Source of the DNA: Hemileia vastatrix
Taxonomy: Eukaryota > Basidiomycota > Pucciniomycetes > Pucciniales > Zaghouaniaceae
Length of the DNA stretch: 64,000 bases
Assembly (NCBI GenBank): GCA_030280995.1
Contig: JASXTE010000015.1
Span: 27,274,501-27,338,500, forward strand
Direction: 5' to 3'
In this document: piece by piece, positions 21,863 to 64,000 of the stretch
Position numbering within the stretch: the first letter of the stretch is position 1
Layout: each line of letters opens with the position of its first letter
Notes under the pieces: generated by a model
The model's database searches: none
Told to the model about the DNA's origin: nothing
The model's input: the letters and a program-made list of their open reading frames with translations, nothing else
Translations under genes and position numbers: made by a program

Positions 21863-22821
21863 TCAAATTTTCTCCTGTATTTTCTCCTAAACCAATCTCT
21901 TCATTTTTTCCAATACCACCCTTATTTCCTTCCTGCATTTTTCAAATACCTCCTCCTCTCCTACCAGTACCACTTCTCCAATCTCCAGTAATTCTTCTGC
22001 CGCATCAAAGGAGGCGGCATCGACAATCTTGTCAATCTCATCACTTAAATTATTGATGAATTGAGTTTTTCATCCCTTCCAAGGTTTCTTTGACCATACC
22101 TGGTCAAGGGTTTCCTTGTTATCCTCCCTCAAATCAACCGCCAGTTGACTTGCCTCAATTGGCAGCGATGGCGCAGCTTCCACAATTGGAGCTTCTGCAA
22201 TGACATCTGAATTCTAAAAAACATACAGTCACCAGTAACAGAATATTGAAACAAGAAAAGGCAGACTTACTTCGAAAACCAGGTCAGGCTCTAAGAATAG
22301 CCTCAGGGTGACCTCTACTGTCACTTCCTTCTCCTCTTCATCATCTTTGATGATCATCCGCTGCTTCCTTGGAGTCTGGTTTGAGATGGGAACTTCATCC
22401 TCATCCTCTTCAACAAGCTCATCCACCTCCTCTTCCACCCCTTGTTTTCTACCTGTGGCCTGGGTTACCCAAGTTGCCACGGTATCCTCAACCTCTTCCT
22501 CAACTTCTTCTACCAAACAATTGTCCCCAACCAACACGTCCCAAATGTCTTTGACTACCTCTTTGGTCTTTAGGATTACCCAGTACTTAGTCTTGGTAAA
22601 TCTTTGCTCAATGTCCTCATTTTTTGAGAGAGCATCACATGTCACCTGTCTCCAGCGGCAAAACTCGCATTTCTGGAAAGGACCTCGTGTGGCTGTGCTT
22701 TTGATGCAAAAATACTCCAATAATTTTCAGGCCATGCATGCTTGGGAATATTGCCGTGTAACGATTCCTCCATCCACTTGGGGCGTGGAGGTGTGGGAGT
22801 TGGAGTAGGGCAGTTTGACAT
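21863..22821 (-). pseudogene. Antisense Cys-cluster gene relic in B3, unit 1
   Basis: Homologue of the intact gene at 54963-55955, in the same position (between pol and 3' LTR, antisense to pol). ATG at 22821 gives MSNCPTPTPTPP, then a 1-bp deletion near codon 15 and a TGA at the first CxxC, followed by EYFCIKSTATRGPFQKCEFC and the acidic body. The splice sites survive: donor at 22270 (GTAAGT), acceptor before 22213, intron 57 bp. Exon 2 carries a stop after WSKKPWKG and another near the end (TAG for Trp). Non-functional. Confidence 0.85.
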
Positions 22822-23727: not shown

Positions 23728-24185
23728 ATTATACTTAATTTATAAATAACGTCAAACCAAATACACCCCATTATATAGAAAACTCCAATTTTCTTTGGCC
23801 CCTTGAATAAACCACCCTTAATTTATCACTGACCATCCAATATAACCCACAGATCCTTTAACGTTAGTCCTATTCCTCCTCACATCCCTTTAATTAACCT
23901 CTGAAACACAATAAACCAACATTAAAAATATACTATTTATCCTAGCACTAACACATTGCCCATTTGCTTAAAGTTGAAAAGTATAAATAGATGATTGAAT
24001 AATTTAGATTTAAGATTTAGATAGAGCAGTTTCTAGTGTGTTTGAATCAAGACAACAAAAAAGAAAAATAAGTTACTAGGTAGATGTTGAATTCTGAGCT
24101 TTGAGTATGGATTTATGTAAAGATTGATGGTATAAAAGATTTAATTTCGCTTTTGAGTGTCATGTTTTGCATGATAGATTCCCAG
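23728..24185 (-). repeat. Diverged family B-like LTR, second part
   Basis: First 135 bp repeat 20698-20832. The rest resembles the minus-orientation B LTR: TTTGAGTATGGATTT..TTGAGTGTCATG, then a stretch similar to the DNA just beyond B2's left LTR (CCCAGGTATGAATCC..GTTGAGCATGAGA versus CCCGGGTGTAAGAACGC..GTTGAGCGTAAGA). Confidence 0.55.
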
Positions 24186-25782
24186 GTATGAATCCCAAGC
24201 TGTGTTGAGCATGAGAATTCTCCATTGACCTTATCTTCTTGTTTATTTATTAACTCTTGAAAATTATAATAGAGTCAAAAAATATATAATAATATTTTAA
24301 TATCATTTTATAATGCCTGAACATCATGATCTGACTCCAACTCCTCCTAAACCCCAAGCTGACAGCAGGATACCCACTTGCTAATTAAAAATAGCTTGCA
24401 TGTCTTGTGTAGCTATGGATTGGATCAAAAGAGTTAGAAAGTCAACCTTCACCATTTAACTTAATTTATTTCTTGATACCATAGAATTAAAAAATTTTGT
24501 CTATTCAATTGACATATTTATTAATATTAATATTAATCAAAATATGATCCCTTTAAAACTAGTTTTTTTATTTGTGTGTCTTTTTCACAAAATGAATACC
24601 ATGTAATAGATTTTTTCATGAGAAACTATTTTATTTATGAAAAGAATAACACTTTCACCTATTCAATTCAGTTCTTAAATAATAATAAAGTATAAAATTC
24701 AACCTGAACCACATATTTTATCATCAGAACACTTTTAAAAAATCTATTGTTCTTATTCCCATATCTACAGTGAAAGTATTCCACAGTGTAGCATTGAAGC
24801 CAATTTAAGCACTAAAATTAACGTTTAAAGAAATTCATACTACTTTTTTTTTTTTTTTTTATACTTCAATTTTTATATCTAGTTAGAATTTCAGTTTTTC
24901 ATATAATACAATTCAATAAGTAGTGATGAATTATTCCAACTCATGGGATTACTCTACCAACTTAAACTATTTCATGTAATTTTGATGAATTAAATCATGA
25001 AAAGCTCCATAATCTCACATATGTATTACATTAAATAAATCTATAGTGCAAAAAACTCTTAGTATTTGAAGAATAAGTAAAACCAAAAAAGAGAAAAAAT
25101 TAGTTTCCATTTAATTTTGATCAACTTCTTGCATTTAAAAATTTCAAAAACTGAATTGAAATTTACTATTATGAGAAAAATACCTCTTTACAGATATATC
25201 AACAAATAATTACTCAATTTTTTTATTTCTTAGTATAAAGAAGCTATGAGAGTACTTCTTTGAGTCAGAAATGATGAAAAAAAATTTGCTATCCTTTATT
25301 TGTTTTTTATGGGCCTTTTTACAGTAATCTAAAGTAAAATATTTAAGAATTTAGATGATTCAATATCAATTTAAGAAAAATTAATTAAATTAAAAATAAT
25401 TATATTTCATAATCAAAATTTTTAGAAAGACATCAAAAAAAGAAAGCAGGTCATATGGTATGAATTTAAAAAGTAAAGCATAGAATCCTGCGTTAAAAAG
25501 AATTTCCAATACCAAGAGCCACTGATTTTATTGTATAATCTCTCTATAAAAATTAATATAATCACTATACAGGTTAAAAGTGATGCTTTTGAAATAAATA
25601 ATACAATTTTATGTATTTTTACTTATCAATTGAAACTGATTATGAAAATTAAATTGTGTTTTATGAAAAATTACTGTGAATGGAACAAAATGTTTAACCT
25701 CCACCCTTTTTTTTTATTTCTATTGATTATTCATTAGACTCTCAAAATTATTTCAGCACAGAATCATCCATCTTTGGTTAAG
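24186..25782. other. Gene-free AT-rich block, unit 1
   Basis: About 1.6 kb without a credible coding frame or recognisable repeat termini. It could be the remains of a retroelement interior. Duplicated almost exactly at about 32240-33830. Confidence 0.7.
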
Positions 25783-27200: not shown

Positions 27201-27212
27201 AGTTTTAAGTTT

Positions 27213-29918: not shown

Positions 29919-30877
29919 TCAAATTTTCTTCTGTATTTTCTCCTAAACCAATCTCTTCATTTTTTCCAATACCACCCTTATTTCCTTCCTGCATTTTTCA
30001 AATACCTCCTCCTCTCCTGCCGGTACCACTTCTCCAATCTCCAGTAATTCTTCTGCCACATCAAAGGAGGCGGCATAAACAATCTTGTCAATCTCATCAC
30101 TTAAATTATCGATGAATTGAGTTCATCAACCCTGCCAAGGTTTCTTTGACCATACCTGGTCTAGGGTTTCCTCGTTATCCTCCCTCAAATCAACTTCCAG
30201 ATGACTTGCCTCAATTGGCAGCAATGGCACAGCTTCCACAATCGGAGCTTCCGCGATGACATCTGAATTCTAAAAAACATACAGTCACCAGTAACAGAAT
30301 ATTGAAACAAGAAAAGGCAGACTTACTTCAAAAACCAGGTCAGGCTCTAAGAATAGCCTCAGGGTGACCTCTACTGTCACTTCCTTCTCCTCTTCATCAT
30401 CTTCAATGATCATCCGCTGCTTCCTTGGAGTCTGGTTTGAGATGGGAACTTCATCCTCATCCTCTTCAACCAGTTCATCCACCTCCTCTTCCACCCCTTG
30501 TTTTCTACCTGTGGCCTGGGTTACCCAAGTTGCCACGGTATCCTCAACCTCTTCCTCAACTTCTTCTACCAAACGATCGTCCCCGACCGAGACGTCCCAA
30601 ATGTCTTTGACCACCTCTTTGGTCTTCAGGATTACCCAGTACTTAGTCTTGGTAAATCTTTGCTCAATGTCCTCATTTTTTGAGAGAGCATCACATGTCA
30701 CCTGTCTCCAGCGGCAAAACTCGCATTTCTGGAAAGGACCTCGTGTGGCAGTGCTTTTGATGCAAAAATACTCCAATAATTTTCAGGCCATGCATGCTTG
30801 GGAATATTGCCGTGTAACGATTCCTCCATCCACTTGGGGTGTGGAGGTGTGGGAGTTGGAGTAGGGCAGTTTGACAT
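29919..30877 (-). pseudogene. Antisense Cys-cluster gene relic, unit 2
   Basis: Copy of 21863-22821 with the same frameshift near codon 15 and TGA at the first CxxC, so the gene was dead before the segmental duplication. Splice donor (GTAAGT) and acceptor remain. The acidic body is otherwise open for about 160 codons (30776-30285). Confidence 0.85.
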
Positions 30878-38648: not shown

Positions 38649-38689
38649 CTCCCTCACTCTAAAAAAACAATAAAAAAATGCTATGATTT

Positions 38690-42358: not shown

Positions 42359-42439
42359 TAAGATTTCTTTTTGAGATTCATATGATATATTGCTGGAACA
42401 ATCACTTGACGTATCATCCAGTGCTATTGTGTCATCAGC

Positions 42440-48335: not shown

Positions 48336-49720
48336 AGACAACATTAAAATTTTGTTAGAAATGGGTATTGTTGAAAAAGTGGACACAACATCTAAGTATT
48401 GTGTTATTTCACCAGTTTTAATCTCTTATGAAAAAGATAAGTCAAGATTATGTGGTTATTACAGAGCTCTGAATACATTCACTGTGGATGATATTTACCC
48501 TCTACCAAGGATAGCTTCTATCCATTCTACCTTACAAGGAGAAAAATATATATTTTCTGCCTGGATGGAAACAAAGGGTACCACCAGATTCCTGTGGAAA
48601 ATAATTCTCAGGATTTCTTACTCATAACCACACCAATGGGGATATATAAATATGTGAGAATGCCTTTTGGCCCAAAGAATGCGCCTTCAGTCTTCCAACA
48701 ATTGATGGATAGTATTTTTCATCAGGAAGTGGTTGAAGGATGGCTTTTAGTTTATATTGATGACACCATAGTGTTTTCAAAAACATATGATGAACAACTA
48801 AATCACCTGAAAAGAGTATTTCAAAAGATGGATGAAATTAATATGACAATTCCATTAAAGAGATATAAGTTTGGGTTTCAATCCTTGAAAGTACTTGGAC
48901 ATGTTGTATCTGGATTACAAATTTGTGTTGACCAGTATAAAGTGGAAGCAAGAAAATGCATTAGTATACCTATGAATGTGAAAGATGTTCAAAGTTTTTT
49001 AGGCATTTGTGGATATTATAAGCAGAATATAAAAAATACCAATCCATTGCAGCCCCTTTAACAACATTAATCAGGAGAAATGAGGCTTTCATTTAGAATA
49101 ATGAAAGACAACATGCCTTTGATAAATTTAAGAATGTTTAATGTCAGCTCCAATATTGGGACTGACAGATTTTAACCTCCCTTTTATCTTGTATACTGAT
49201 TCAAGCTTCACAGGGTTAGGTGCTGCTTTACAGCAAAAATAGATAATAAATGGTAAATTATCTAAAGTAGTTATCTGTTATATATCCAGAGCCTTAAGAG
49301 AGACAGAATTAAGGTATGGTGCCACACAACTGGAATATTTAGCCATTTTGTGGGCCCTGGAGAAACTTCATTACTATCTGGAAGACCAGAAGTTTGAATT
49401 AATAACAGAATGCAGTGCAGTAAAATCATTACTAAACATGAAAAAACCTAATAGGCACATGTTTGGATGGGAAATAGCTGTACAAGAGTACAGAGAAAGA
49501 ATGACAATCACTCATAGAGCAGGAAAATTGCATTCTATTGTGGATTTATTATCCAGAAGCCCTTTGAAAAATGATACTGACAACCCAGCTTATGTACCTG
49601 AAAATGAGGTAATACATATATTTGAGATTTATATAGTGGATTTAGAGGAAGAATTTATGCAAACTATATTAGAAAATTATACATCTGATAAATATTTTTC
49701 TAAATATCTACCATTTTAAA
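48313..49720 (+). pseudogene. A3 RT and RNase H
   Basis: Frames 48313-48627 and 48594-49061 cover RT: SPVLISYEKDKSRLCGYYRA, MPFGPKNAPSVFQQLMDSIF, catalytic YIDD (LLVYIDDTIVFSKTY), LGHVVSGLQICVDQYKV. RNase H is in pieces to 49719 (LYTDSSFTGLGAALQQ region at about 49190, WALEKLHYYLEDQKFELITE at 49348). At least four frameshifts or stops. Confidence 0.8.
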
Positions 49721-51180
49721 TGATCCAACTAATGCCTCTATGAGTGCATTAATTAAAACTTTACCTCCAAAGTATAAAAATGCTTTTGAAAAAGGTAAAC
49801 TTTCAATTTAAGATGGATGGATATATTACAGAAAAAAGCTAAGTAAGTTAATAGCTATACCACCTTCTATTAAAGAGTTATTATAAGTACTTTTCATGAT
49901 GACATCTTAGATGGTCATTTTGATTTAACAAAACATTAACTAGAGTTAAAAGTACAGCCTGGTGGATAAGCATGAAAGAAGATGTACAAAACTACATAGA
50001 CACATGTGACTCTTGTCAGACATCTAAAAGATTGAATAGGAAGAGAGCTGGGTTGTTACAACAAATAGAGCAGCCAAAAGCTCCATGGAAAATTTTAAAC
50101 ATGGATTTTGTCTCTGTCTTGCCATTAGCAGGAAAAGAAAGTCTCAATTATTTCTGGGTAATCACGGATAGACTAACAAAAATGTGTAAATTTATCCCTA
50201 CCCATAAGGAGGTATCTGCAAAAGACTTGGCGTTGCTATGGTAGACTCAAATGATGAATACTTCTGGGTACCCCAAAGCCATAATCTCTGACAGAGACCC
50301 TAAATTTACTTCAGAGTTCTGTAAATCTTTGATGGAAGTATCAGGTTGTCAAATGAAATTATCTACAGCACATCATCCACAAACTGATGGGCTGGCTGAA
50401 AGAATGATACAGACACTGGAAAATATAATCAGAGATATTGTGCCTTTGGATTAGAATACAAAGACAATGATAAATTCACACATGACTGGGTAACATTAAC
50501 TCCTGGCCTTGAATTTGCTTATAATAGCACAACTCATTCTGTAACAGAAAAAAAACCATTTGAACTCTGGCTGGGATATGTCCAAATACCCTAGTGTATC
50601 ATTTAAATAAATTACCAAGGCTAGATCTACACCCTGGTACTAAATCCTTTATTAATATACAAAAATTGTGTAAAAAGCATGCAGAATAGTGCATTCAAAG
50701 AGCATTTTAATATGACAAGAAAAGGTGGGATAAATATCATGAAGAATTTGAATTCAAAAAAGGAGACAAAGTCATAATTTCAACACTACATTTTAACTTA
50801 CAAGGTAATTTTAAATTGAAGGATCCCTTTGTAGGACCTTTTTAGTCAACAAAATGGTTGGTAATAATGCTGTGGAAGTCATATTATATGCCCCATATGA
50901 TAGGAAACATCCAGTTTTCCCTATCTCATTATTAAAACCTTACCATGTAAATGATCCTGACTTATTTCCAAAAATAAGAGGAAGGCCTAAAAAGAAATCT
51001 GAAGAAATTGTGGAAAAAGCAGAGATTGAAAGGATACTCAAGAAAAAAAACCTTACTAAAGAGAAATGAAGTGAGTACTTATTAAGATTTAAGGGAAAAT
51101 CAAATGAATTTGATAAATGGATACCTGAAAAAGAAATCTAAAATCTATACTCCCTTCTTAAAAAAATTAAACAGAAATAA
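49721..51180 (+). pseudogene. A3 integrase and chromodomain remnant
   Basis: 49972-50244 holds the second half of the zinc module (CDSCQTSKRLNRKRAGLLQQ) and first catalytic Asp (NMDFVSVLP). 50251-50454 has AIISDRDPKFTSEFCKSLME and HHPQTDGLAERMIQTLENII. 50854-51069 is the GPY/F module (AVEVILYAPYDRKHPVFPIS). 51070-51180 retains a decayed chromodomain (LLRFKGKSNEFDKWIPEKEI). Confidence 0.8.
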
Positions 51181-51340: not shown

Positions 51341-51742
51341 TGTCAGTCTGTATCTCCCCAGGACTGAGTAAAAAGTACTTATAAGTTTTTAAATACATGG
51401 ACTATACATGGGAACAATAAATTAAAGTACACAAGTTGTATACATCAGGAAAAATTATGATAAAATACACTACATGCCATTATAACATCTTATATACATG
51501 CATATATCCACCTTTTATAAGTATTATGTACTTAATACTAAGTTGGAATATGTTAAGATAATCTCAAGACACTTAAATATAAGGCTACATAATTTTTAAG
51601 TAGACTTAAAGCTGTTGTTTTCATTGTTTTATGTCAAAAACCAAGAAATGCGCTTTAAATCACTTAAAAGTTGACTATATGCACTATAAATTTAATGATA
51701 TTAATATTCCCTTTGACATATAAATTTGTCTTAATAAGAACT
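51341..51742 (+). repeat. A3 3' LTR, truncated by B1 insertion
   Basis: Matches the start of 34755 onward for about 400 bp and stops where the B1 LTR starts (TGTCACG, 51743). The remainder should lie beyond the window on the far side of B1. Confidence 0.88.
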
Positions 51743-52555
51743 TGTCACGCGCCACGTGACATTTGAGGCAAAAGCAGCTCATTAAATCAATAATACAGAG
51801 GTCTAAATCCATACTCGAAGCGCAGAAAGCAATTCTACATAGCAACTGCGACTTTCCTTTGTGTACTCACTATTCAATTGCGCTAGTCTAAACTCTAAAT
51901 CCAAATTAGTCAATCTCTCAATAGTGTGTCTCAGTCTTTTCCTCAATAAGCGACACACAGTGCAATAGTCAATGTAATAGTCCACTAAAAGGTTTATTAA
52001 ATGTCTGTGAATTATTAAAAGGGGTAGTGAGCATGGACAGAATGGTTAATGGAGGATTAAAGGGTTAACGGATGTTAGTGAGGACAGTCCAGGTGTAATG
52101 GGTATATTTTTTTTAATGGTCTGTGGTGTGCGGAATAGTGGATGGGTATGAGTTCAATGCAAGGAGGAGTAAAGGATATAAAAGGGGTTGGGTTTTTGGT
52201 TCGACATTCTTTAGAATTAAATTATAAAACGTATATATACTTAATAGTGGTAAAGCTTTAGGTTAAATCATTATTATCGTATCTTTCCTTATTTTTTCAG
52301 TAATCATTTCTAAATCCTAAATCTTTTATTATTGAGTTTCCAACCCTTTGTGAGATCTTAAGAATTTTAGTATTACTTTTAAATTATATTAGACTTCTTC
52401 TCGAACATATCTCAAAGCAGTAGCTCTTCCTTTGAGTCATCTTCGAATCACTTCCTCAAACATTTCCTCTGTGCATCAAAGAAGTTTCTAAAATCCTCAC
52501 TCCATCTCACTTCCCAGGAACACCCTTGACCTTGTGCGTAGGTTGTCCGGTGACA
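51743..52555 (+). repeat. B1 5' LTR
   Basis: 813 bp, TGTCACGCGCCACGTGACA to GTCCGGTGACA. The first 19 bases are themselves an inverted repeat (TGTCAC/GTGACA). Aligns with both B2 LTRs and both B3 LTRs. The sequence after it (GTATAATTTAATTCTC) is shared with B2, but no tRNA complementarity was recognised. Confidence 0.92.
52177..52184 (+). promoter_or_regulatory. TATA box of B1 LTR
   Basis: TATAAAAG in GGATATAAAAGGGGTTGG, conserved in all family B LTRs here. Confidence 0.65.
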
Positions 52556-52630
52556 GTATAATTTAATTCTCTGTAGTTCTCATTCTTTGCACTACTACGT
52601 CCCTTTTCAGGTGTTTTCTAAATTCTTAAA

Positions 52631-53818
52631 ATGACACCTGTTCAACGCACTCCTCCTACGGGCACTACTACTAGAGCTTGAGCCAGAGGCAGGCCAACAG
52701 CTACACGGCCTGTTTCCCGCACTCCATCCTTGGAACCTCTTGACCTTATGGAATGGGGACATTCCGTCTAATCTGTGGAAGACATACCCCAGGATTTTGA
52801 TGATATTAGCGAGTAAGAAGAAGAAGAGGATACAATGCATGAGGCACCATCCGCCCCTTCTACTCACCCTTCTGGTCAACCTTCGGAACCTGGACCATCT
52901 AATTTGCTGGAGGACTTCATGAGACTTTTCATGAAAACCCTCTCCAACTCAACGTCTTTGGAGGGATCTAAATTCAAAACTCCCTCTATGAAATCTCCTG
53001 ATAAATTCGATGGAGAACATCCAGACAGATTGCGGCCCTTCTTGCAAACCTGCAAGCTCCTTTTCCATAATGACCCTCGAACCTTCAATAACAACCGATT
53101 AAAGGTTGTTTACGCTTCTTCATTCCTAGCCAGAAAAGCAGCAAGATGGTTCGAACCTTATCTTATCATGCTCTCTTCGACAGAAACCCACTTACTTATT
53201 AATAACTGGGAAAAATTTGAGGACCAACTCTTCACGTTGTTCAGTGACCCTTATGAAACTGAAAATGCAGAAATGGAACTTGATTTTCTTTGCATGAGTG
53301 ATAATGGTAAAACATCTGAATACATCTCGAACTTCAGAGCACTTCAAACTCGAGTAGGTTGGAATGATGCTGGCCTCAAGTATCATTTCAAAAAAGGACT
53401 TCCTTCGAGGATTCTGGATCAATTAAATCTTTACGGTCAGAAGATGACTACTTTAACGGATTTAATGGATCAAACCCTTGAACCTGACGGTGTTTACCAA
53501 GGACGACTTCAACATCGTCGATACGCCAACAAATCTCAAGGCCTAAATTTTAAATCAAGACCTTCTTCACACACACGGACAACTCAATCCTCCTTGACTC
53601 AATCCAAACCCAACAAGGGAAAGGACAAACCTCAACTGAAAATCTGGACCCCAGGTGATATCAGCAAAGTACTGGATCCTAAAGGGGAACTTAAAGAATC
53701 TGAAAGGAAGAGGCAAGCAGATAATGGGTTATGTATGTATTGTGAGGGTAAGCACAAGCTGGAAGATTGTGTAAAATTGAAGGAAAGAGAAGGTACTAGT
53801 TCGAAGTCAAAAAACTAG
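52631..53818 (+). pseudogene. B1 Gag (capsid and zinc knuckle), three stops near the N-terminus
   Basis: ATG 52631 (MTPVQRTPPTGTTTRA) matches B2's gag start. TGA, TAA and TAA at about 52679, 52769 and 52817 break the first ~65 codons. From 52835 the frame is open for 327 codons. Capsid: KTPSMKSPDKFDGEHPDRLR, FLARKAARWFEPYL, LFTLFSDPYETENAEMELDF, SEYISNFRALQTRVGWNDAG, GLPSRILDQLNLYGQ. Basic stretch, then a zinc knuckle CMYCEGKHKLEDC (one residue shorter than the usual CCHC). Ends KSKN-TAG on a -1 frameshift signal. It would form the virus-like particle and bind element RNA. Confidence 0.85.
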
Positions 53819-53852
53819 TAGATAGTTTACTTGTGTGCAAAGCAAACTATCT
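53809..53852 (+). promoter_or_regulatory. -1 ribosomal frameshift signal (A AAA AAC TAG plus hairpin) between gag and pol
   Basis: In the gag frame the codons read A AAA AAC TAG, the canonical X XXY YYZ heptamer immediately before the gag stop (53816-53818). After a 5-base spacer a stem GATAGTTT/AAACTATC (53821-53828 with 53844-53851) follows. Slipping back one base opens the protease frame (KLVDSLLVCKANYL). The same heptamer and hairpin occur in B2 (60304-60262, minus strand). Confidence 0.85.
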
Positions 53853-54046
53853 TATCTCTCCCAGTGCACAGAACCTCCATGTCTTAAGGACTGGAGTTGC
53901 TTTAAACCACTTGAGATTCATTCTTTTTAGGGAGGATACCCCCTTCAGTTGTCTTATAGACTCTGGAGCTTCAATTTCTTTTGTCAGTTTATCTTTTGCC
54001 GAGATGTTAAAGCTGACATTCACAGATATCGATTGAACTCCAATAT
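53818..54046 (+). pseudogene. B1 protease, N-terminal part (split by B2)
   Basis: Frame -1 relative to gag: VCKANYLISPSAQNLHVLRT, then the active site CLIDSGASISFVSLSFAEML. A TGA at about 54034-54036 follows FTDID; B2's copy has the same TGA. Interrupted at 54046 by B2, with AATAT duplicated at 54042-54046 and 62363-62367. Confidence 0.8.
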
Positions 54047-54849
54047 TGTCACCGGAAGACCTACGCACAAGGTCGAGGATGTTCCTGCAAGTGAGATGAA
54101 AGATTTAGATACTTCTTTGAAGCACAGAGGGATGGTTCGAGGAAGTGATTCAAAGATGACTGGAAGGAAGATCTACTGCTTCTAGATATGTTCAAGAAGA
54201 ATCCTAATATAGTTTGAAAGGTAATATTAAAATTCTTAAAATCTCACAAAGGGTTGGAAACTCAGCAATCAAGATTTAGGATTTAGAAGTGATTATTGAG
54301 AAATGAAAGAAAGATAAAATAATAATGATTTTTACTTTAGAGTTTTACCACTATTAACTATAAATACATTTTATAATTTAATTCTAAGGAATATCGAACC
54401 AAAAACCCAACCCTTTTTATATCCTTTACTCCTCCTTGCATTGACCTCATACTCATCCACTATTCCGCACACCACAAAGCATTTAAAATATATCCATTAC
54501 ACCTAGACCCTCCTCACTAACATCCGTTAACCCCTTAATCCTTCACTAACCACTCCGTTCATGCTCACTACCCCTTAATAAACCACAGACATTTCATAAA
54601 CCTTTTAATGTACTATTATATTGATTATTGCGCTGTGCGTCGCTTATTGAGAAAAATACTAAGACACACTATTGAGAAATTGACTAATTTTAATTTAGAG
54701 TTTAGACTAGCGCGGTTGAATAGTGAGTACACAAAGGAAAGTCGCAGTTGCTATGGAGAATTGCTTTCTGCGCTTCGAGTATGGATTTGAGCCCCTTATT
54801 ATTGCTTTAATGAGCTGCGTTTGCCTCGAGTGTCACGTGGTGCGTGACA
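54047..54849 (-). repeat. B2 3' LTR
   Basis: 803 bp. On the plus strand TGTCACCGG...GTGCGTGACA. Confidence 0.95.
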
Positions 54850-54962
54850 GATGCCCGGGTGTAAGAACGCGAGCTCCGTTGAGCGTAAGACATATTTCCC
54901 ACACTAATTTTCCTTCCTCTTTATTTAATTATTATTATTATTATATTTTTTTTTAACTCACT

Positions 54963-55955
54963 ATGACGGATTTCCCTACACCAACTCCCACGCCTCCACA
55001 CCCCAAAGCGGATGGGGGTGTTGTTACACGACAATTTTTGAAGACTTGCACTGCCTGCGAGTCGATGGAGTATTTTTGCGTGGAGAGCACTGCGACACAA
55101 GGGCCTCTCCAGAAGTGCGAGTTTTGCCAATGGAGAAGGGTGGCGTGTGACGCCTTAGCAAAGGATGCCGACATTGAGACTCGGTTTACTAAGACAAAAT
55201 ATTGGGTGATCCCCAAAACAAAGGAAGTAGTCGAGGACATTTGGGATCTGTCCATTGGGGACAATCAATCGGTGGGGGAGAATGAGGAGGAAGTTGAGGA
55301 TGATGTGACAACCTGGGTGACTAGGGATGCGAGCAAGAGGCGGGCCATCGAAGAGGATTTCAACAAATTGGTCGAGGAGAAAGAAGAAATTCCCATCTCA
55401 AGGAAAACCCCGAAAAAACGACAGGTGGTCATCGAAGATGACGAAGAGGAGAGGGAGGTGGCAGAGAAGGTCACTCCTAAATTATTCTTGGAGGCTGACC
55501 CAATCTTCGAAGTAAGTTCACTTTTTTATAATTCATAAATTTAATTACTGATGATCCTGTTTTAGAATTCAGACATCATCATTGAAGTCCCTATGGCGGA
55601 AGCTTCAAATATGGAAGCGACCCTTGTGGAACCCACTGCTGTGGAAGTGGCAGTGTCAGTGGAGGATAGGTTACTGACTTTTACCTCGAGGGAGGAAAAC
55701 GAAGAAACCCTCGATCAAGTATGGTCGAAGAAGCCTCGTCAGGTTCGACGAGCAAAATTTATTGAAGACTTGAGGGGCAAGATTGATAAAATTGTCGATG
55801 CCGCTTCCTTCGACGTAGCCAAGGAGCTACTTGAACTTGGGGAATTGATTCCGGTAGGAGAGGGGGAGAATTTTGAAAAATGTAGAAAGGAGATAAGGGA
55901 AATTTTGGAGAAGATGAAGGGATTGGTTTGGGAGAAGATAAAAGAGAAAATTTAA
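54963..55955 (+). CDS. Antisense accessory gene of B2: two-exon Cys-cluster acidic protein (312 aa)
   Basis: Lies between the B2 3' LTR and pol, opposite to pol. Exon 1 54963-55511 (183 codons), intron 55512-55565, exon 2 55566-55955; phase 0, frame preserved. The N-terminus MTDFPTPTPTPPHPK is Pro/Thr-rich. Cysteines 29, 32, 39, 52, 55 and 62 form C-x2-C-x6-C-x12-C-x2-C-x6-C (CTACESMEYFC and CEFCQWRRVAC), the spacing of fungal Zn2Cys6 clusters, though the usual basic residues between the first cysteines are missing. Then comes an acidic middle (ENEEEVEDDVTTWV), a basic patch (RKTPKKRQ), a second acidic run (EDDEEERE), and a helical C-terminus (FEKCRKEIREILEKMKGLVW). All exons are intact although gag and pol are broken. 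Decayed copies at 21863-22821 and 29919-30877 occupy the same place. A DNA- or chromatin-binding role is conceivable; function unknown. Promoter not seen. Confidence 0.8.
55512..55565 (+). other. Intron of the antisense gene
   Basis: 54 bp: GTAAGT donor after codon GAA, branch-like TTACTGATGAT, acceptor TGTTTTAG. The relic copies keep both sites with a 57-bp intron, supporting real splicing. Confidence 0.8.
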
Positions 55956-56699
55956 AATGAAAAGAGAAAAGAAGAAAAAGGAATGTAGAAACAATTTGTA
56001 TTTAGTTATTTTATTTTGTTATTTTATTTAGAATTTTAATATTTATTTTTATAAGATTTGAATGAGAGAAGAAAGAAGAAGAAGAAAAAAAAATAGTTGA
56101 TTGGAAAAAATTTGTTGTAAAGAAAATTTAATGAAAAGAAAAAAAATTGTTATTTAAGTTTTTTAACTGAAGATTTGAGGGATTTTAGTTATTTTAAAAA
56201 AGATCAGAAAGAAAAGGAAAATAAGAAATAAAAATTTTAAGAGGATTTTGAAAGAAAGAAGTAATTTGTTTTGAAGAATTTAAAAGAGTGATTTAGAAGT
56301 TAAAGTGAAGTTCAAGAAAGATGGTTGTGTAATGTTCGTGAAGAATTTTGATAGTTCGAGGAAAAGAAAATTTTAAAGAAAGAATGTATATAGAAAATTG
56401 AGAAGAATTTTTTTTTTTTTTATTTGTTTTATTTTATTTTATTTTAATTTGGTTTTATTTTATTCTTATTCTTATTTTATTTTATTTTAATTTAATTTAA
56501 TTTAATTTAATTTAATTTAATTTTAATTTAATTTAATTTATTTTTTTGAAGAAAGTTGAAAAATTTTGAAAAGAAAAAGAATAAAGAAGAAAACAAAAGA
56601 ATTTTTTTAGAAGTAAAGATGTTTTAGATTTTAAAAGAAAAAAAGAACAGAGAAAAAAGAAAGAAAAAAAAAGAAAGAAAGAAAAAGTAAAAGAGAGTT
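55956..56699. other. AT-rich untranslated block of B2
   Basis: Purine-rich plus strand (AGAAAAGAAGAAAAAGG) with ATTTTATTTTA and TTTAATTTAA runs at 56420-56545. It separates the 3' ends of pol and the antisense gene, which converge. No coding region. Confidence 0.8.
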
Positions 56700-57188
56700 T
56701 TAAGGTTTTGGTTTTAAAGGATATTTAAGATGAAAAGATTTTAGGAGTTCAGGGGCGTTAGAAACATTGATGGCTGGTTCCCAGGATGTTTTGACTGAGT
56801 CATCAAGGAAGCCTTCCCATTCCACGAGGTATTGAAGTTTTCCCTTGCGCATTCTTGAATCAAGGATGCGGATTACTTCCCACTCTAGATGGTCTTCTAC
56901 TTCGACCGGTTCTGGAGGAGGTTGGTTCTTGCCTGGGTATGTTTCTCGAGCCAGTTCCAGGAGAGATACGTGAAAAACAGGGTGAATAGCCTGCCATTTA
57001 GGAGGTAGATTGAGTCGAAATGCAGCTTTAGAGACTTCAGAGTCGATTTTGAATGGCCCCAAGCGTTTTTCAGCCAGTTTCTTTGATGGTCGAGTCGTTC
57101 CAATGTTTCATGCGTCGAGCCATACCTTGTCGCCTGGTTTAAAAGAAGTAGCAGTTTGTCAATGTTTGTCGGCCTGTTCCTTGTACCT
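56700..57188 (-). pseudogene. B2 integrase C-terminus and chromodomain
   Basis: 57062-56700 open. GPY/F-like region (GPFKIDSEVSKAAFRLNLPP, HPVFHVSLLELA), then chromodomain EWEVIRILDSRMRKGKLQYL, VEWEGFLDDSVKTSWEPAIN, VSNAPELLKSF. Expected cage aromatics (Trp/Tyr, Trp, Trp) are present. Joined to the upstream integrase only through stops and frameshifts in 57063-57188. Chromodomains direct chromovirus integration to methylated heterochromatin (family knowledge). Confidence 0.88.
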
Positions 57189-58541
57189 TCAAACCGCTAA
57201 TTCCAAATTTGATTTAAGTTCCTCTTGGAGTCGTGATATGGTTCGAAGATAATGTTCAGCAGGATGATTAGTTCCTACATGGATTGAATTGAATTGAGGA
57301 TGTCTTCCATAAACAGTTTCAAAAGGAGATTGTTGTGTCAAAGAATGAGTCGAGTTATTATAAGCAAATTCGGCCAATGGTAACCATGTGGTCCAATCGT
57401 CTTGTTGGTAACTGACATAAATTTGAAGGTATTGTTCGAGGATTTGGTTTGCCCTTTCTGTTTGCCCATTGGTTTCAGGATGATAGGCTGTGGAGAGGTT
57501 CCTCTTGACATTGAGTTGTTGAAACAGTTGAGTCCAGAATGTGGATACAATCAATGAGCCTCTATCTGAAATAATATCATTAGGTAAGCCGTGTTTGTAA
57601 AATACATATTCTAGAAACAATTTTGACAAATCTTCTGCTGTAGCAGCAGTAGTGGTTTTAATAAAAATAGACATTTTTGAAAATCTATCTACTATTACTA
57701 ATATAGCATCAAAATTATTAGAAAGAGGAAGTTGAGAAATAAAATCCATTGATAAAGATTCCCAAGGTTTAGAGGGAATAGGAAGTGGTTGAAGCAACCC
57801 ATACTTCCGGTGACGGGGAGCCTTATTCCTATTACATTTGTAACAAGCTTTTATATAGGCCTTGATTTCTCTGGTCATACCTGGCCAGAAGAAATCCCTC
57901 GCTATTAACTGGTAGGTTTTATCAACCCCAAAATGACCGGCTAATGGAGAATCATGTTGACTATTGAAAATCCATAATTTTATCTCATTTTTGTCGGGTA
58001 TGACTACTCTACCTTTGAAGACTAATAGACCTGATTCAATACTAAATCTTTTGGCCCCTTGCTTTGAGAGTATTTTGTCTTTTAACCCTAAACAATTATC
58101 GTCCTTTGACTGAGCTTCAAGGATGTTGGATAGTGGATTTTGAAACAATTGAATTGTCATCAAATTAAGTTGATGAGCTGTTAACATTGATTTGTTGAAG
58201 ATTGATTTCACATTTGCTGGGTTTTTGTCAGCAAATGCATCCCTCCGCTGTGGGTAAACGTTGTCCCAACGTGACAAGATATCTGGGACAATGCAGTTCT
58301 TACCTGGGTGATAGGAAATAGAAAAAGGAAATTCAGCCCACCTGGATTGACACCTGGTTAACACTTTGGAAGACATAAAGTATTTCAAAGCATTATGGTC
58401 TGTTAAAATTTGAAAAGGACTATCTAAGCTGAGAAGAAAAGAGCACCATTTTTTAAGACAATGAATAATAGCTAAAAGCTCTTTGTCATGAATTTCATAA
58501 TTTAATTCTGCTGCAATGAGTTTGTGTGACTCAAAAAGCAA
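57189..58541 (-). CDS. B2 RNase H end and integrase core (450-codon open segment)
   Basis: Starts inside RNase H (ELNYEIHDKELLAIIHCLKK, TDHNALKYFMSSKVLTRCQS). Integrase zinc module HDSPLAGHFGVDKTYQLIAR..CYKC has both His and both Cys. Catalytic residues: Asp in SMDFISQLP, Asp in DIISDRGSLIVSTFW, Glu in YHPETNGQTERANQILEQYL. Complete catalytic triad, but it is a fragment of a broken polyprotein; the first Met is only the beginning of the open stretch. Confidence 0.87.
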   Translation of the reverse strand: MLFESHKLIAAELNYEIHDKELLAIIHCLKKWCSFLLSLDSPFQILTDHNALKYFMSSKVLTRCQSRWAEFPFSISYHPGKNCIVPDILSRWDNVYPQRRDAFADKNPANVKSIFNKSMLTAHQLNLMTIQLFQNPLSNILEAQSKDDNCLGLKDKILSKQGAKRFSIESGLLVFKGRVVIPDKNEIKLWIFNSQHDSPLAGHFGVDKTYQLIARDFFWPGMTREIKAYIKACYKCNRNKAPRHRKYGLLQPLPIPSKPWESLSMDFISQLPLSNNFDAILVIVDRFSKMSIFIKTTTAATAEDLSKLFLEYVFYKHGLPNDIISDRGSLIVSTFWTQLFQQLNVKRNLSTAYHPETNGQTERANQILEQYLQIYVSYQQDDWTTWLPLAEFAYNNSTHSLTQQSPFETVYGRHPQFNSIHVGTNHPAEHYLRTISRLQEELKSNLELAV

Positions 58542-59660
58542 TATGATGAAACAGTTTTGTTTCTGGATTCAATTGAGAAATGGCCCCTGCGATAGCATAA
58601 TTGCTCCCATCCGTCTCAACTATTGTCATAGCAGAAGGATCAAAGTGTCGAAGAATTGGAGCTGTGGTGAACTCCGTCTTCAATGCTTCGAATTCCTTTT
58701 GTGCTGTAGAAGTAAAAATAAAAGGAATATCTTTTCTAAGAAGAGAAGTAAGATTGGAAATAGTTTTAGAGTAATCTTTAATAAATCTTCTATAGAAATT
58801 TGCAAAACCCAAAAATCCCTGGAGGGATTTAATGGATTTGGGCTCAGGCCATTCCAGGACCTTTTGAACTTTTTTGTTGTCCATGACTAAACCATCAGTG
58901 GATAATGTAAAACCCAAAAAATCAATAGATTTAAGATGGAATTCACATTTATTATGCTTGGCTTAGAGATTGTGATCTCGAAGTCAATTTAAAACCTGTC
59001 GAACATGATGAATATGTTCATCTAGTGTCTTCGAGAAAATTAAAATATCATCTAAATAGACAACAACAAATTGTTCAACAACATCTTGAAAGATGTCATT
59101 GACAAAATTTTGAAAAGTAGATGGTGCATTACACAATCCAAAAGGCATAACTAAATATTCAAAACTACCAAATCTAGTGCGCATTGCCGTCAGTGGTTCA
59201 TGACCTTCCGCAATGCGAATAAGATTGTAAGCGCCTCTAAGATCAATTTTAGAAAAGAAATTAGCACCATTAAAAAGGGTAAGAAGAAATGACATAGGAG
59301 GAACAGGATATGCATTCTTCTTAGTGACTGTGTTGAGCTTTCTATAGTCAACACACAACCTAAGACTACCATCCTTCTTTTTTACAAAGAGGACAGGGGA
59401 GCCGGTTGGAGATTTACTGGCTCTGATGAAACCTTTGGCTACATTCTCTGCAATGTAGTCTCGAAGAACTTGATATTCGTCCTTCGACAAGGAATAGACA
59501 GGACCTGCTGGAGGTACTGGACCTATTAACTCTATCTGATGGTCGTAGGGTTGATGAGGTGGTACATTATTGGCCTTGCGGATTGAAAAAACGTTGAGGA
59601 AATTATGATAGATTTCTAGTAGAGTCGATTTGGTCTTCCTCATCATCTTCGAGAGAATCT
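58531..59660 (-). pseudogene. B2 reverse transcriptase and RNase H start
   Basis: 59646-58984: SKDEYQVLRDYIAENVAKGF, SPVLFVKKKDGSLRLCVDYR, KIDLRGAYNLIRIAEGHE, MPFGLCNAPSTFQNFVND, catalytic YLDD (VVVYLDDILIFSKTLDEH). A TGA after VRQVLN and a TAA follow, then 58917-58531: GFTLSTDGLVMDNKKVQKVL, SLQGFLGFANFYRRFIKDYS and RNase H VETDGSNYAIAGAISQLN. A frameshift near 58535 leads into the next segment. Typical Ty3/Gypsy RT. Confidence 0.88.
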
Positions 59661-59662
59661 GT

Positions 59663-60297
59663 TTAGGGAAGACCAGAATTGAGAGAGCATAATTCGATTA
59701 CTTTGAGTGAAGTCATCAAGCTAGAAGGGTTAGCCAATTGCTCATTTAAAGAAAGATCAGATGCTTGCAAGTTATCTGGCAGAGATTTGTCCTCTAGCAG
59801 GACATTGTCAGGCGGGTTGTTTAATTCCCTATTGACATGCATTGAAGAATCAGAAATATACTTAGTCTGTGGGGTGATCAATCCCCGTTTCCAATCAAGT
59901 TCAGGATTCCAATGTGTTAAAAAGTCATGGCCAAGAATGGTATTGTCCATCCTTAAGGAATCCAAGACTGATAATTCCCACTCAAAAGGGGGGAAATTCG
60001 GAAAGTTGAAAACCCATAAAACTTTCTTCCTGACCCAATATCTGGGTTCCTCTGATTCGACCAAGTAAATTGGAGTTCAATCAATATCTGTAAATGTCAG
60101 CTGTAACTTCTTGGAAAAAGATAAACTGACAAAAGAAATTGAAGCTCCAGAGTCTATAAGACAAATGAAAGGGGTATCCTCCTTAAAAAGAATGAATCTC
60201 AAGCGATTTAAGGCAACTCCAGTCCTTAAGACATGGAGGTTCTGTGCACTGGGAGAGATAAGATAGTTTGCTTTGCACACAAGTAAACTATCCACTA
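59663..60297 (-). pseudogene. B2 protease and linker
   Basis: 60295-60077 in the -1 frame after gag: VCKANYLISPSAQNLHVLRT and active site CLIDSGASISFVSLSFSKKL, ending FTDID-TGA (same stop as B1). The same frame continues 60064-59663: YWVRKKVLWVFNFPNFPPFE, MDNTILGHDFLTHWNPELDW (second protease half), then an acidic linker. Retropepsin, interrupted. Confidence 0.82.
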
Positions 60298-60304
60298 GTT
60301 TTTT
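60262..60304 (-). promoter_or_regulatory. -1 ribosomal frameshift signal in B2
   Basis: Same heptamer, TAG, spacer and GATAGTTT/AAACTATC stem as B1 53809-53852. Conserved although the surrounding coding region has acquired stops. Confidence 0.85.
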
Positions 60305-61481
60305 GACTTCGAACTAGTACCTTCTCTTTCCTTCAATTTTACACAATCTTCCAGCTTGTGCTTACCCCCACAATACATACATAACCCATTATCTGCTCGC
60401 CTCTTCCTCTCAGCTTCTTTAAGTTCCCCTTTAGGATCCAGTACTTTGCTGATATCACCTGGGGTCGAGATTTTCAGTTGAGGTTTGTCCTTTCCCTTGT
60501 TGGGTTTGGATTGAGTCAAGGAGGATTGAGTTGTTTGTGGGTGAGAAGAAGGTCAAGACTTAAAATTTAGGCCTTGAGATTTGTTGGCGTATCGACGATG
60601 TTGCAGTTGTCCTTGGTAAACGCCGTCAAGTTCGAGGGTTCAATCAATTAAATCCGTTAAAGTAGTCATTTTCTGACCGTGAAGATTTAATTGATCCAGA
60701 ATCCTCGAAGGAAGTCCCTTTTTGAAATGATACTTGAGAGCAGCATCATTCCAACCTTCTTGATTTTGAAGCGCTCTGAAGTTCGAGATATATTCAGAGG
60801 CTTTACCATTATCACTCATGCGAAGAAAATCAAGTTCAATTTCTGCGTTGTCAGTTTCATTAGGGTCACCAAACAACGTGAAGAGTTGGTCTTTGAACTT
60901 TTCCCAATTATTAATATGTAAATGGGTTTCGGTCGAAGAGAGCATGAGAAGATAAGGTTCGAACCATCTTGCTGCTTTTCCGGCCAGAAATGAAAAAGCA
61001 TAAACAACCTTTGATCAGTTGTTATTGAAGGTTCGAGGGTCATTATGGAACAGGAGCTTGCAGGTTTGCAAGAAGGGCCGCAATCTGTCTGGATGTTCTC
61101 CATCGAATTTATCAGAAGATTTCATAGAGGAGTTTTGAATTTAGATCCCTCTGAAGATGTTGAAGTTGAAAGAGTCTTCATGAAAAGTCTCATGAAATCT
61201 TCCAGAGAATTAGATGGTCCAGGCTCTGAAGGGTGACCAGAAGGGTGGTTAGCAGGGGCGGATGGTGCCTTGTGCATTGTATCCTCTCCTTCTTCATCAT
61301 CACTAGAATCATCAAAATTTTGTGGGATGTCTTCTACAGATTAGACTGAATGTTGCCGTTCCCTAAGGTCGAGTGGATCCAAGGAGTGAGTGCAGGACAC
61401 ATGCCGTGTGGCTGTTGTCTTGCCTCTGGCGCGAGCTCTAGTAGTAGCGCCTGTAGGAGGAGTTTGTTGAACAAGTTCCAT
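60295..61481 (-). pseudogene. B2 Gag
   Basis: ATG at 61481 (MELVQQTPPTGATTRARARG). Several stops: TAA near codon 50 (HSV-stop), TGA in NNN-stop-SKVVYAF, TGA after LTDLID, TGA in FKS-stop-PSSH. Capsid preserved in 60945-60640 (LFTLFGDPNETDNAEIELDF, SEYISNFRALQNQEGWNDAA). Zinc knuckle CMYCGGKHKLEDC in 60519-60295, ending KSKN-TAG on the A AAA AAC heptamer (60304-60298). Confidence 0.85.
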
Positions 61482-61559
61482 TTAAAGGATTTAGAGAAAA
61501 CACACTGAAAAGGGACGTAGTAGTGCAAAGAATGAGAACTACGGAGAATTAAATTATAC

Positions 61560-62362
61560 TGTCACCGGACGACCTACACACAAGGTTGAGGATGTTCCTG
61601 CAAGTGAGATGAAAGGTTTAGATACTTCTTCAAAGCACAGAGGGATTGTTCGACGAAGTTATTCGAAGATGACTCAAAGGAAGATCTACTGCTTTGAGAT
61701 ATATTTGAGAAGAATCCTAATATAGTTTGAAAGGTAATATTAAAATTCTTACAATCTCACAAAGGGTTGCAAACACAACAATCAAGATTTAGGATTTAGA
61801 AGTGATTATTGAGAAATGAAAGAAAGATACAATAATAATGATTTTTACTTTAGAGTTTTACAACTATTAACTATAAATACGTTTTATAATTTAATTCTAA
61901 GGAATATCGAACCAAAAACCCAACCCTTTTTATATCCTTTACTCCTCCTCGCATTGACCTCATACCCATCCACTATTCCGCACACCACAAACCATTTAAA
62001 ATATATCCATTACACCTGGACCCTCCTCACTAACATCCGTTAACCCCTTAATCCTTCACTAACCATTCCGTCCATGCTCAATACCCCTTAATAACCCACA
62101 GACATTTCATAAACCTTTTAATGTACTATTATATTTATTATTGCGCTGTGCGTCGCTTATTGAGAAAAATACTAAGACACACTATTGAGAAATTGACTAA
62201 TTTAGATTTAGAGTTTAGACTAGCGCGGTTGAATAGCGAGTACACAAAGGAAATTCGCAGTTACTATGTAGAATTACTTTCTGCACTTCGAGTATGGATT
62301 TGAGCCCCTTATTATTGATTTAATGAGATGCTTTTGCCTCGAGTGTCACGTGGCGTGTAACA
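61560..62362 (-). repeat. B2 5' LTR
   Basis: 803 bp, matching 54047-54849. The outer end is TGTAACA on the plus strand where the other LTR has CGTGACA. TATA region ATATAAAAAGGG (complement) near 61924-61936. Confidence 0.95.
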
Positions 62363-62367
62363 AATAT

Positions 62368-64000
62368 ATTTGGTTGAATCAGAGGAACCCAAGTATTGGG
62401 TAAGTAAGAAAGTTTTATGGGTTTTCAACTTTCAGAACTTTCCCCCCTTTGAGTAAAATTATCAGTCTTGGACGCCCCAAGGATGGACGATACCATTCTT
62501 GGCCATGACTTTTTAACACATTGGAATCCTGAAATTGATTGGTCCCTGGGATTGATCACCCCACGCACTAAGTATATTTCTGATTCTTCAATGCAGGTCA
62601 ATAGGGAGTTAAACAACCCGCCTGAAAATGTCCTTCTAGAGGACAAATCTCTGCCAGATGACTTGCAAGCATCTGATCTTTCTCTAAATGAGAAATTGGC
62701 TAACCCTTCTAGCTCGATGACTTCACTCAAAGAGGATTTAAATTTCCTTGAAGTAATCAAATTATGCTCTCTCAATTCTGGTCTTTCCTCAACAGATTCT
62801 CTCAAAGATGATGAGGACAGCCAAATCAACGTTGAAGCCATTAAATCAGCTCTACCGGAAATATATCATTATTTCATTGATTTTTTCTCAATCCGCAAGG
62901 CGGATAAGTTACCACCTCATCAACCCTACAACCATCAAATAGAGTTAATAGGTCCTGTCTATTCTTTGTCAAAGGACAAATCTCAAGCTCTTTGAGACTG
63001 CATTGCAGAGAATGCAGCCAAAGGTTTCAGCAGAGCCAGTAAACCTCCAACCGGCTCCCCTGTTATTTTTGTAAAAAAAAAAGACAGTAGCCTTAGGATG
63101 TGTGTTGACTATAGAAAGCTCAACACAGTTACAAAGAAGAATGCATATCCAGTTCCTTCTATGTCATTGCTTCTTACCCTTTTTAATGGTGCTAATTTCT
63201 TTTCTAAAATTGATCTTAGAGGTGCTTATAATTTTATTCACATTACGGAAGGTCATGAACCACTGACTGAGATGTGCACTAGATTTGGTAGTTTTGAATA
63301 TTTAGTAAAGCCTTTTGGATTATGTCTTTTCAAACTTTTGTTAATGACATCTTTCAATATTTTGTCAAACAATTTGTGGTCATCTACTTAGACGATATTT
63401 TAATTTTCTCGAAGACACTGGATGAACATATTCATCATGTTTGACAGGTTCTAAATTGCTTTGAGATCAGGGTCTCTAGGCCAAGCACAATAAATGCGAA
63501 TTCCATCTTAAATAAATCAATTTTTTGAGTTTTACGTTATCCACTGATGGTTTAGTCATGGACGACAAAAAGGTCCAAAAAGTCCTGGAATGGCCTGAGC
63601 CTGAAACTGTTAAATCCCTCCAAGGATTTTTGGGTTTTGCAAATTTCTATAGAAGATTTATTAAAGATTACTCTAAAACTATTTCTAATCTTACTTCTCT
63701 TCTTAGAAAATATATTCCTTTTGTATTTACTTCTACAGCACAAAAGGAATTTGAAGAATTGAAGACTGCGTTCACCACAGCTCAAATTCTTTGACACTTT
63801 GATTCTACTTCTTCGACAATAGTCGAGACAGATGCAAGCGATAATGCTATTGCAGGGCTCATTTCTCAATTAAATCCTGAAACAAAATTATTTCATCCTG
63901 TTGCTTTTGAGTCACACAAACTCATTGCAGCAGAATTAAATTATGAAATTCATGACAAAGAGCTTTTAGCTAGTATTCATTGTCTTAAATAATGGTGCTC
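62368..64000 (+). pseudogene. B1 pol, continued (protease end, RT, RNase H start)
   Basis: Resumes at VESEEPKYWVSKKVLWVFNF. 62468-62995: MDDTILGHDFLTHWNPEIDW, acidic linker, PPHQPYNHQIELIGPVYSLS. RT: about 62996-63100 with a TGA, then MCVDYRKLNTVTKKNAYPVP, SKIDLRGAYNFIHITEGHEP, a deletion after KPFGLC, and STYLDDILIFSKTLDEHIHH near 63380-63440. 63525-63794: SFTLSTDGLVMDDKKVQKVL and GFLGFANFYRRFIKDYSKTI. RNase H begins about 63820 and runs off the window. Many stops. Its own antisense gene and 3' LTR should lie further right. Confidence 0.85.

What the first reader, a model, noticed from the sequence alone, without database searches (positions are those of the whole stretch)
54963..55955. Intron-containing antisense gene with Zn2Cys6-like cysteine spacing inside a chromovirus
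Seen: a spliced 312-codon frame between pol and the 3' LTR of B2, opposite to pol, with six cysteines spaced C-x2-C-x6-C-x12-C-x2-C-x6-C, acidic tracts and a basic patch. It is intact while gag and pol have many stops. Decayed homologues occur in the same antisense position in the truncated elements of both tandem units, with splice sites retained, so the gene is a stable component of this element family. Known: Zn2Cys6 clusters are fungal DNA-binding modules, and extra antisense ORFs are known in some plant Ty3 elements. Inferred: the protein could act on element or host transcription, or the element captured a host gene. An intron antisense to the genomic RNA is not removed when the element is copied, so the gene can be mobilised intact.
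Basis: partly seen in the sequence, partly recalled or inferred. Interest (0 to 1): 0.8.

Follow-up and report, generated by a model that had tools for sequence, protein, structure and literature searches.

The report
Antisense gene inside a fungal retrotransposon
A retrotransposon in a rust-like fungus carries, on the strand opposite to its own genes, an extra gene with a predicted intron that shows the marks of long-term selection for its protein, and that protein may help the element control itself.

Summary
On the + strand, opposite to pol of the chromodomain Ty3 element B2 (54047-62362), exons 54963-55511 and 55566-55955 join across a 54-nt GTAAGT...TTTTAG intron into 312 codons; six cysteines are spaced C-x2-C-x6-C-x12-C-x2-C-x6-C. 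It is a real gene family: against the decayed copies B3/B4, dN/dS is 0.12 (0.16-0.17 without CpG transitions), while a neutral simulation gives mean 0.73 and minimum 0.44 (200 runs). In B3/B4 the splice donor and acceptor and five of six cysteines persist.
Corrections: B3 and B4 are one insertion tandemly duplicated, so the window holds two long lineages plus a short fragment of a third; B2's intactness is weak evidence (30% chance if neutral); Zn2Cys6 membership is not met (Pfam far below cut-off, first-half basic residues missing, no usable fold). New: the gene block is anciently diverged between elements whose pol tail (92-93%) and LTRs (84%) are close, so block and flanks have different histories.
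Antisense genes between pol and the 3' LTR are known (Grande, RIRE2, Retand; Boty in fungi). Best reading: an accessory, probably nuclear regulator of the element; the regulatory role is inferred. No relatives were found outside the window; the host genome search did not complete.

The parts
54047..62362 (-). Element B2, chromodomain-containing Ty3 (chromovirus) insertion, nested inside a related element B1 on the + strand
   Evidence: Self-alignment, domains, LTR ends and 5-bp repeat AATAT on both sides
54047..54849 (-). 3' LTR of B2
   Evidence: 47/803 differences from the 5' LTR, no indels
61560..62362 (-). 5' LTR of B2
54963..55511 (+). Antisense gene, exon 1 (183 codons), with the six-cysteine region (residues 29-62)
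   Evidence: dN/dS 0.13 and 0.10 against B3 and B4
55512..55565 (+). Predicted 54-nt intron, GTAAGT...TTTTAG, phase 0, in-frame stops
   Evidence: donor and acceptor conserved in B3 and B4; splicing itself not shown
55566..55955 (+). Antisense gene, exon 2 (129 codons plus stop)
   Evidence: dN/dS 0.10 and 0.14 against B3 and B4
54850..54962 (+). Leader between the 3' LTR and the antisense ATG; place of a possible own promoter (TATAAAA in B3/B4 84-85 nt before the ATG; TGTAAGA at the matching place in B2)
   Evidence: promoter is inference
56700..57062 (-). pol of B2, C-terminal piece with SH3-like and chromodomain
   Evidence: Pfam
57189..58541 (-). pol of B2, RNase H and integrase piece
   Evidence: Pfam; 3 stops in the aligned frame from 58541 to 56703
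58984..59646 (-). pol of B2, reverse transcriptase piece
   Evidence: Pfam
60295..61278 (-). gag of B2 (broken; the counterpart in B1, 52835-53818 +, is an open frame); the B2 limits are read from the repeat coordinates
21866..22821 (-). Decayed antisense gene in truncated element B3 (element part about 20838-23740, + orientation)
29922..30877 (-). Decayed antisense gene in B4, the tandem duplicate of B3
23826..24440 (+). Fragment B5: partial LTR, leader and the start of the antisense gene (ATG at 24313; C-x2-C kept) of a third, more distant lineage; duplicated in the second unit (gene start matched at 32388-32477)

Best explanation
The frame is a true accessory gene of this chromovirus family, of the kind called antisense aORF between pol and the 3' LTR. 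Shown from sequence: the reading frame diverged under purifying selection, its splice donor and acceptor were kept, and it is far more diverged at synonymous sites than the pol tail and LTRs beside it. Inferred: it is transcribed from a promoter in or beside the 3' LTR, spliced, and makes an acidic nuclear protein whose cysteine cluster binds zinc; the protein regulates the element itself (LTR activity, or the choice between silence and copying), as HBZ does for HTLV-1. Because sense genomic RNA carries the gene in reverse, the intron is not spliced out during copying and the gene travels complete. The gene block appears to be exchanged between element lineages, most simply by template switching during reverse transcription (inferred).
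For: Coding: dN/dS 0.12 (bootstrap 0.07-0.19 and 0.07-0.18) for B2-B3 and B2-B4, differences by codon position 71/52/139 and 69/50/140, both exons separately 0.10-0.14, shifted frames 1.08-1.31; neutral simulation with the LTR mutation spectrum: mean 0.73, minimum 0.44, n=200; 0.16 and 0.17 after removing CpG transitions. Third-position GC 0.53 beside spacer windows of 0.07-0.28 GC. Splice donor, acceptor and phase conserved. Five of six Cys positions kept in B3/B4, the second being a stop codon there; Cys1 and Cys2 kept in B5. Different histories: pol tail 92-93%, exons 70-72%, LTR 83-84%; synonymous differences 128/189 against 2/32 in the pol tail, p 2e-11. [quoted passage not shown] spliced antisense HBZ from the HTLV-1 3' LTR (PMC3185765, passages).
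Against: No transcript, splicing, zinc or localisation data. No Pfam family passes its cut-off; no relative at E<=10 in the 5.8-billion-protein collection for the protein or the exon-1 profile (5635 and 5859 word-sharing candidates scored), though that collection holds rust pol proteins. The TATA-like motif of B3/B4 is not kept in B2. Only two long lineages were compared. Differences between the two dead copies B3 and B4 are also synonymous-rich (dN/dS 0.25, 17 of 33 synonymous, simulated P 0.002), which the neutral model does not predict.
Confidence: 0.5

Rival explanations
1. The gene is a maintained accessory gene, but its product serves the replication cycle rather than transcription: nuclear entry of the pre-integration complex, choice of integration site, or RNA packaging.
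For: Same sequence evidence for a selected protein; the aORF review discusses nuclear entry of the pre-integration complex and retroviral accessory proteins in this connection (PMC7264820); strongly charged protein.
Against: Antisense, separate expression is not needed for a structural or packaging role (inference); no Pfam domain passes its cut-off.
Confidence: 0.25
2. The element captured a host gene of the fungal Zn2Cys6 regulator family with its intron, and it works as an ordinary DNA-binding regulator of host or element genes.
For: Cysteine spacing agrees with Zn2Cys6; an intron suggests capture at the DNA level or later gain (inference); acidic stretches.
Against: Pfam Zn_clus E 0.61, 10.7 bits against cut-off 21, and only half the motif; basic residues of the first half absent (recalled pattern); no homologue found; AlphaFold pLDDT 34 and 42.
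Confidence: 0.1
3. What matters is antisense RNA (double-stranded RNA, silencing), and the open frame is incidental.
For: [quoted passage not shown]
Against: Codon-level selection in one frame of both exons with dN/dS 0.12 is not expected of an RNA-only function.
Confidence: 0.04
4. Chance open frame or pseudo-intron.
For: B2's own stop-free state has a 30% chance under neutrality since insertion.
Against: Simulated neutral divergence gives 18 stop-bearing codon pairs on average and a dN/dS of at least 0.44; splice sites conserved at about 70% nucleotide identity.
Confidence: 0.02

Closest known systems
Antisense aORFs (aORF-3R) of plant Ty3 elements: Grande gene23, RIRE2, Retand, PvRetro13 (review PMC7264820, parts 1 and 2 of 3 read)
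   Same: Between pol and 3' LTR, antisense, no clear similarity to other proteins, conserved in most copies of a family; Grande's product is nuclear and has its own promoter
   Different: Here a fungal chromovirus, with an intron predicted from sequence and a six-cysteine cluster; expression not tested
brtn of Boty in Botrytis cinerea (Zhao et al. 2011, not read; known from the review and from citing passages)
   Same: Additional antisense gene in a fungal element whose gag-pol has a chromodomain; the closest precedent seen
   Different: Sequence of brtn not compared; ascomycete host; whether brtn has an intron or cysteine cluster was not seen
HBZ of HTLV-1 (PMC3185765, passages)
   Same: Antisense gene near the 3' LTR, spliced, encodes a regulator of the provirus
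   Different: HBZ's first exon lies in the LTR and the protein is a bZIP; here both exons are internal, no bZIP match, and function is unknown
Fungal Zn2Cys6 regulators (Pfam PF00172)
   Same: Cysteine spacing
   Different: Score far below cut-off, basic residues in the first half absent, no other regulator domain found by Pfam
Additional ORFs drawn in fungal and moss-relative chromoviruses by Novikova et al. 2010 (PMC2864245, passages only)
   Same: Figure legend names an additional ORF of unknown function in the chromoviruses drawn
   Different: Which elements, strand, introns and sequence of those ORFs were not seen

Membership tests
Antisense aORF between pol and 3' LTR (aORF-3R) | Lies between pol and the 3' LTR, opposite to gag-pol | tested here: met
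   54963-55955 (+) between pol end 56700 and LTR edge 54849
Antisense aORF between pol and 3' LTR (aORF-3R) | Present in several copies, conserved as protein | tested here: met
   B2, B3/B4 (one event) and fragment B5; dN/dS 0.12. 'Most copies of the family' could not be tested
Antisense aORF between pol and 3' LTR (aORF-3R) | Antisense transcript | not testable with these tools
   No RNA data
Antisense aORF between pol and 3' LTR (aORF-3R) | Sequence homology to gene23, brtn or other named aORFs | not tested
   Those sequences were not at hand; general protein searches gave nothing
Fungal Zn2Cys6 (PF00172) | C-x2-C-x6-C-x5-12-C-x2-C-x6-8-C (spacing recalled) | tested here: met
Fungal Zn2Cys6 (PF00172) | Profile score above the curated cut-off | tested here: not met
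   10.7 bits against 21, residues 10-25 of the 79-aa piece only; no hit for exon 1 as a whole
Fungal Zn2Cys6 (PF00172) | Basic residues between Cys2 and Cys3 (PS00463-like pattern, recalled) | tested here: not met
Fungal Zn2Cys6 (PF00172) | Binuclear zinc-cluster fold | tested here: inconclusive
   Mean pLDDT 34.4 and 42.2 with three-row alignments
Chromovirus (Ty3 with chromodomain) | RT, RNase H, integrase, chromodomain, LTRs with target repeat | tested here: met
HBZ-like antisense regulator | bZIP domain | tested here: not met
   No such Pfam match for either exon
HBZ-like antisense regulator | Spliced transcript starting in the 3' LTR | not testable with these tools
   Splice sites only

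The most novel reading that the evidence does not exclude
The antisense gene block is an exchangeable control module: element lineages with near-identical pol ends and similar LTRs carry anciently diverged versions of the same selected regulator, swapped by recombination, so the versions may define which related elements silence or help one another, in the way that repressor modules define immunity groups in temperate phages.
Probability: 0.12. Interest if true: 0.8.

Novelty: new variant of a known kind. Interest (0 to 1): 0.52.

Why it matters
The functions of antisense accessory genes in LTR retrotransposons are not known (PMC7264820), and I saw only one fungal example in print, Boty. A family with an intron, a readable selection signal and a cysteine cluster gives a testable case: the intron makes antisense expression visible in RNA-seq, and exchange of the block between lineages lets its role be inferred by comparing elements. 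It would also show how an intron-bearing gene can ride a retrotransposon unharmed.

Tried and rejected
Homologue searches: full protein and exon-1 profile against the 5.8-billion collection, nothing at E<=10; exon-1 profile in viral contigs (27 pattern matches, 0 confirmed) and in prokaryote genome contigs (97 pattern matches, 0 confirmed); a pol piece in viral contigs (2 pattern matches, 0 confirmed); PDB by sequence and profile, best E 0.86 and 0.74. Structure prediction gave unusable models twice, probably for want of relatives, so no fold search was made. No tRNA in the window by ARAGORN. Another copy of the cysteine motif elsewhere in the window was sought by pattern: none. Considered and dropped: chance frame; RNA-only function; 'intact gene proves selection in B2' (P 0.30). 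CpG decay as the cause of the low dN/dS was tested and does not explain it. Literature: ten searches answered; in those listings (several were cut to the best rows) I saw no paper on an intron-containing or zinc-cluster antisense gene of a rust element; the library lacks most subscription papers, and Zhao 2011 on brtn was not read.

Full report
What is there. Element B2 occupies 54047-62362 on the - strand. Its LTRs (54047-54849 and 61560-62362) are 803 bp each, begin TG and end CA, differ at 47 positions without indels, and are flanked by the 5-bp repeat AATAT (flanks printed). Pol pieces match reverse transcriptase, RNase H, integrase and chromodomain models. B2 sits inside a related + strand element, B1 (about 51742-54043 and 62363 to the window end). 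The window is 33% G+C. The host is therefore probably a rust-like basidiomycete; the species was not identified.

The gene. On the + strand, 54963-55511 and 55566-55955 join across a 54-nt intron (GTAAGT...TTTTAG, phase 0, with in-frame stops) into 312 codons. The cysteine pattern did not arise in 1,000,000 random placements of seven cysteines. The gene lies tail to tail with pol, separated by an AT-rich spacer (55956-56699), and its ATG is 113 bp from the LTR edge.

Relatives in the window. Decayed copies lie at 21866-22821 (B3) and 29922-30877 (B4), 55% identical in protein. They are two copies within one tandem duplication, 96.6% identical over 7.2 kb, so they count once. A third, distant lineage is represented by fragment B5 (23826-24440, and again in the second unit), which has part of an LTR, the leader and about the first 37 codons, with Cys1 and Cys2. 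B1's 3' part is outside the window. After the pol-like parts of three other chromovirus-like stretches, no antisense ATG/GTG/TTG frame of the size asked for (110 codons) lies before the next LTR or element; shorter exons would be missed.

Is it coding? Between B2 and B3 the frame has 71, 52 and 139 differences at codon positions 1, 2 and 3 over 297 comparable codons. Sixteen codons with gaps were left out, and 4 codon pairs with a stop (5 for B4), the terminal one included, do not enter the ratio. dN/dS is 0.12 (bootstrap 0.07-0.19), and 0.12 for B4. Each exon alone gives 0.10-0.14; shifted frames give 1.08-1.31. Of six frames, tested against B3, the annotated frame gives the lowest value for both exons; one reverse-strand register gives 0.25 and 0.28 because it shares third positions. 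Because the mutation spectrum is strongly AT-biased (47 polarised LTR changes), I simulated neutral divergence with it: dN/dS mean 0.73, minimum 0.44 in 200 runs; third-position share at most 0.423 against 0.531 observed; 18 stop-bearing codon pairs on average. Removing CpG transitions (40 of 279 and 40 of 276 differences) leaves 0.16 and 0.17. Splice donor GTAAGT and a T-rich acceptor ending in AG are kept at 68% intron identity. So the frame was selected as protein for most of the time separating the two lineages. B3 and B4 now carry a frameshift near the start and internal stops (three and four), one at the second cysteine codon.

What does not follow. B2's own intactness is not proof of recent selection: with about 27 neutral changes since insertion, 30% of 20,000 simulated copies have no stop and keep the ATG. 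Gag has 3 stops and one frameshift, pol 5 stops in two frames over its aligned part, 59148-56703; together that is more than three times the length of the gene. B3-B4 differences, which arose after both were already broken by shared lesions, are still richer in synonymous changes than the model predicts (dN/dS 0.25, range 0.12-0.52; 17 of 33 synonymous, P 0.002); 17 of 35 differences there are CpG transitions, and without them the estimate is 0.21 with a range of 0.05-0.66. This is a caution on the null model and stays unexplained.

Different histories of block and flanks. Along the B2-B3 alignment the pol tail is 92-93% identical, the exons 70-72%, the AT-rich spacer 72-74%, and the LTR 84%. 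An earlier, longer alignment gave 60% for the chromodomain stretch because the truncated copies end inside it; only the part they have is used here. Synonymous differences are 128 of 189 sites in the gene against 2 of 32 (B3) in the pol tail, and 128 of 188 against 5 of 31 for B4 (p 2e-11 and 9e-8). Fourfold sites are identical at 34 of 62 against 671 of 803 LTR positions (p 4e-7). The pol tail compared is short (48 codons). A recombinational swap of the block, or of its flanks, is the simplest reading; strong DNA-level constraint on the LTR and pol end is a less likely alternative.

How it may work. Shown: the selected reading frame and conserved splice signals. From established knowledge: an intron antisense to the genomic RNA is invisible to splicing of that RNA and is copied intact. 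Inferred: expression from the LTR side. B3/B4 have TATAAAA 84-85 nt before the ATG, but B2 has TGTAAGA at the matching place, so this is a lead only. Inferred: zinc binding, nuclear location, regulation of the element. The nearest working model is HBZ of HTLV-1, a spliced antisense product from the 3' LTR that turns down Tax-driven viral expression (PMC3185765, passages); Grande's antisense product is nuclear with its own promoter (PMC7264820).

Known kinds. [quoted passage not shown] PMC8365987 and PMC4227169, passages; Zhao et al. 2011 seen only as a citation). Passages of two fungal surveys (PMC3248453; PMC2864245) and of a rotifer study of extra ORFs (PMC5408684) showed no antisense gene of this kind; those papers were not read whole. 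This gene meets the positional definition of the antisense aORFs. It does not meet Zn2Cys6 membership: 10.7 bits against 21, half of the motif, first-half basic residues absent, and no usable fold. No relative outside the window was found, and the search of the host genome did not complete. I rate it a new variant of a known kind: about 0.95 that it is a real antisense gene family, about 0.5 for the regulatory reading as a whole.

Noticed in passing
20838-23740 and 28904-31797: Differences between the tandem copies B3 and B4 are rich in CpG transitions (17 of 35 in the gene, 25 of 84 over 3 kb), and CpG observed/expected in the decayed gene is 0.36-0.42 against 0.76 in B2, which suggests cytosine methylation of dead elements in this fungus.
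   Followed up: partly
21866-22821 and 29922-30877: Differences between two already broken gene copies are still biased to synonymous sites (17 of 33; simulated P 0.002); CpG decay explains part only.
   Followed up: partly
17298-34753: Tandem duplication of about 8 kb with a partial third copy, which carries along truncated elements and part of a 621-codon open frame at 16290-18155 that has no Pfam match at E<=0.01.
   Followed up: no
51742-54043 and 62363-64000 (+): B1, the element into which B2 inserted, has a gag frame open over 327 codons (52835-53818); compared with B2's gag it gives dN/dS 0.22.
   Followed up: partly
54831-54849, with the matching end of the 5' LTR: The outer LTR end holds an imperfect inverted repeat around CACGTG, in promoter position for the antisense gene; CACGTG is present in both B2 LTRs, while B3/B4 read CATGTG there.
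   Followed up: no
8138-12669, 38638-43156, 46724-51180: A second chromovirus-like family (chromodomain matched in the first stretch), 69-78% identical between copies, with no antisense frame of 110 codons or more between pol and the next LTR or element.
   Followed up: no
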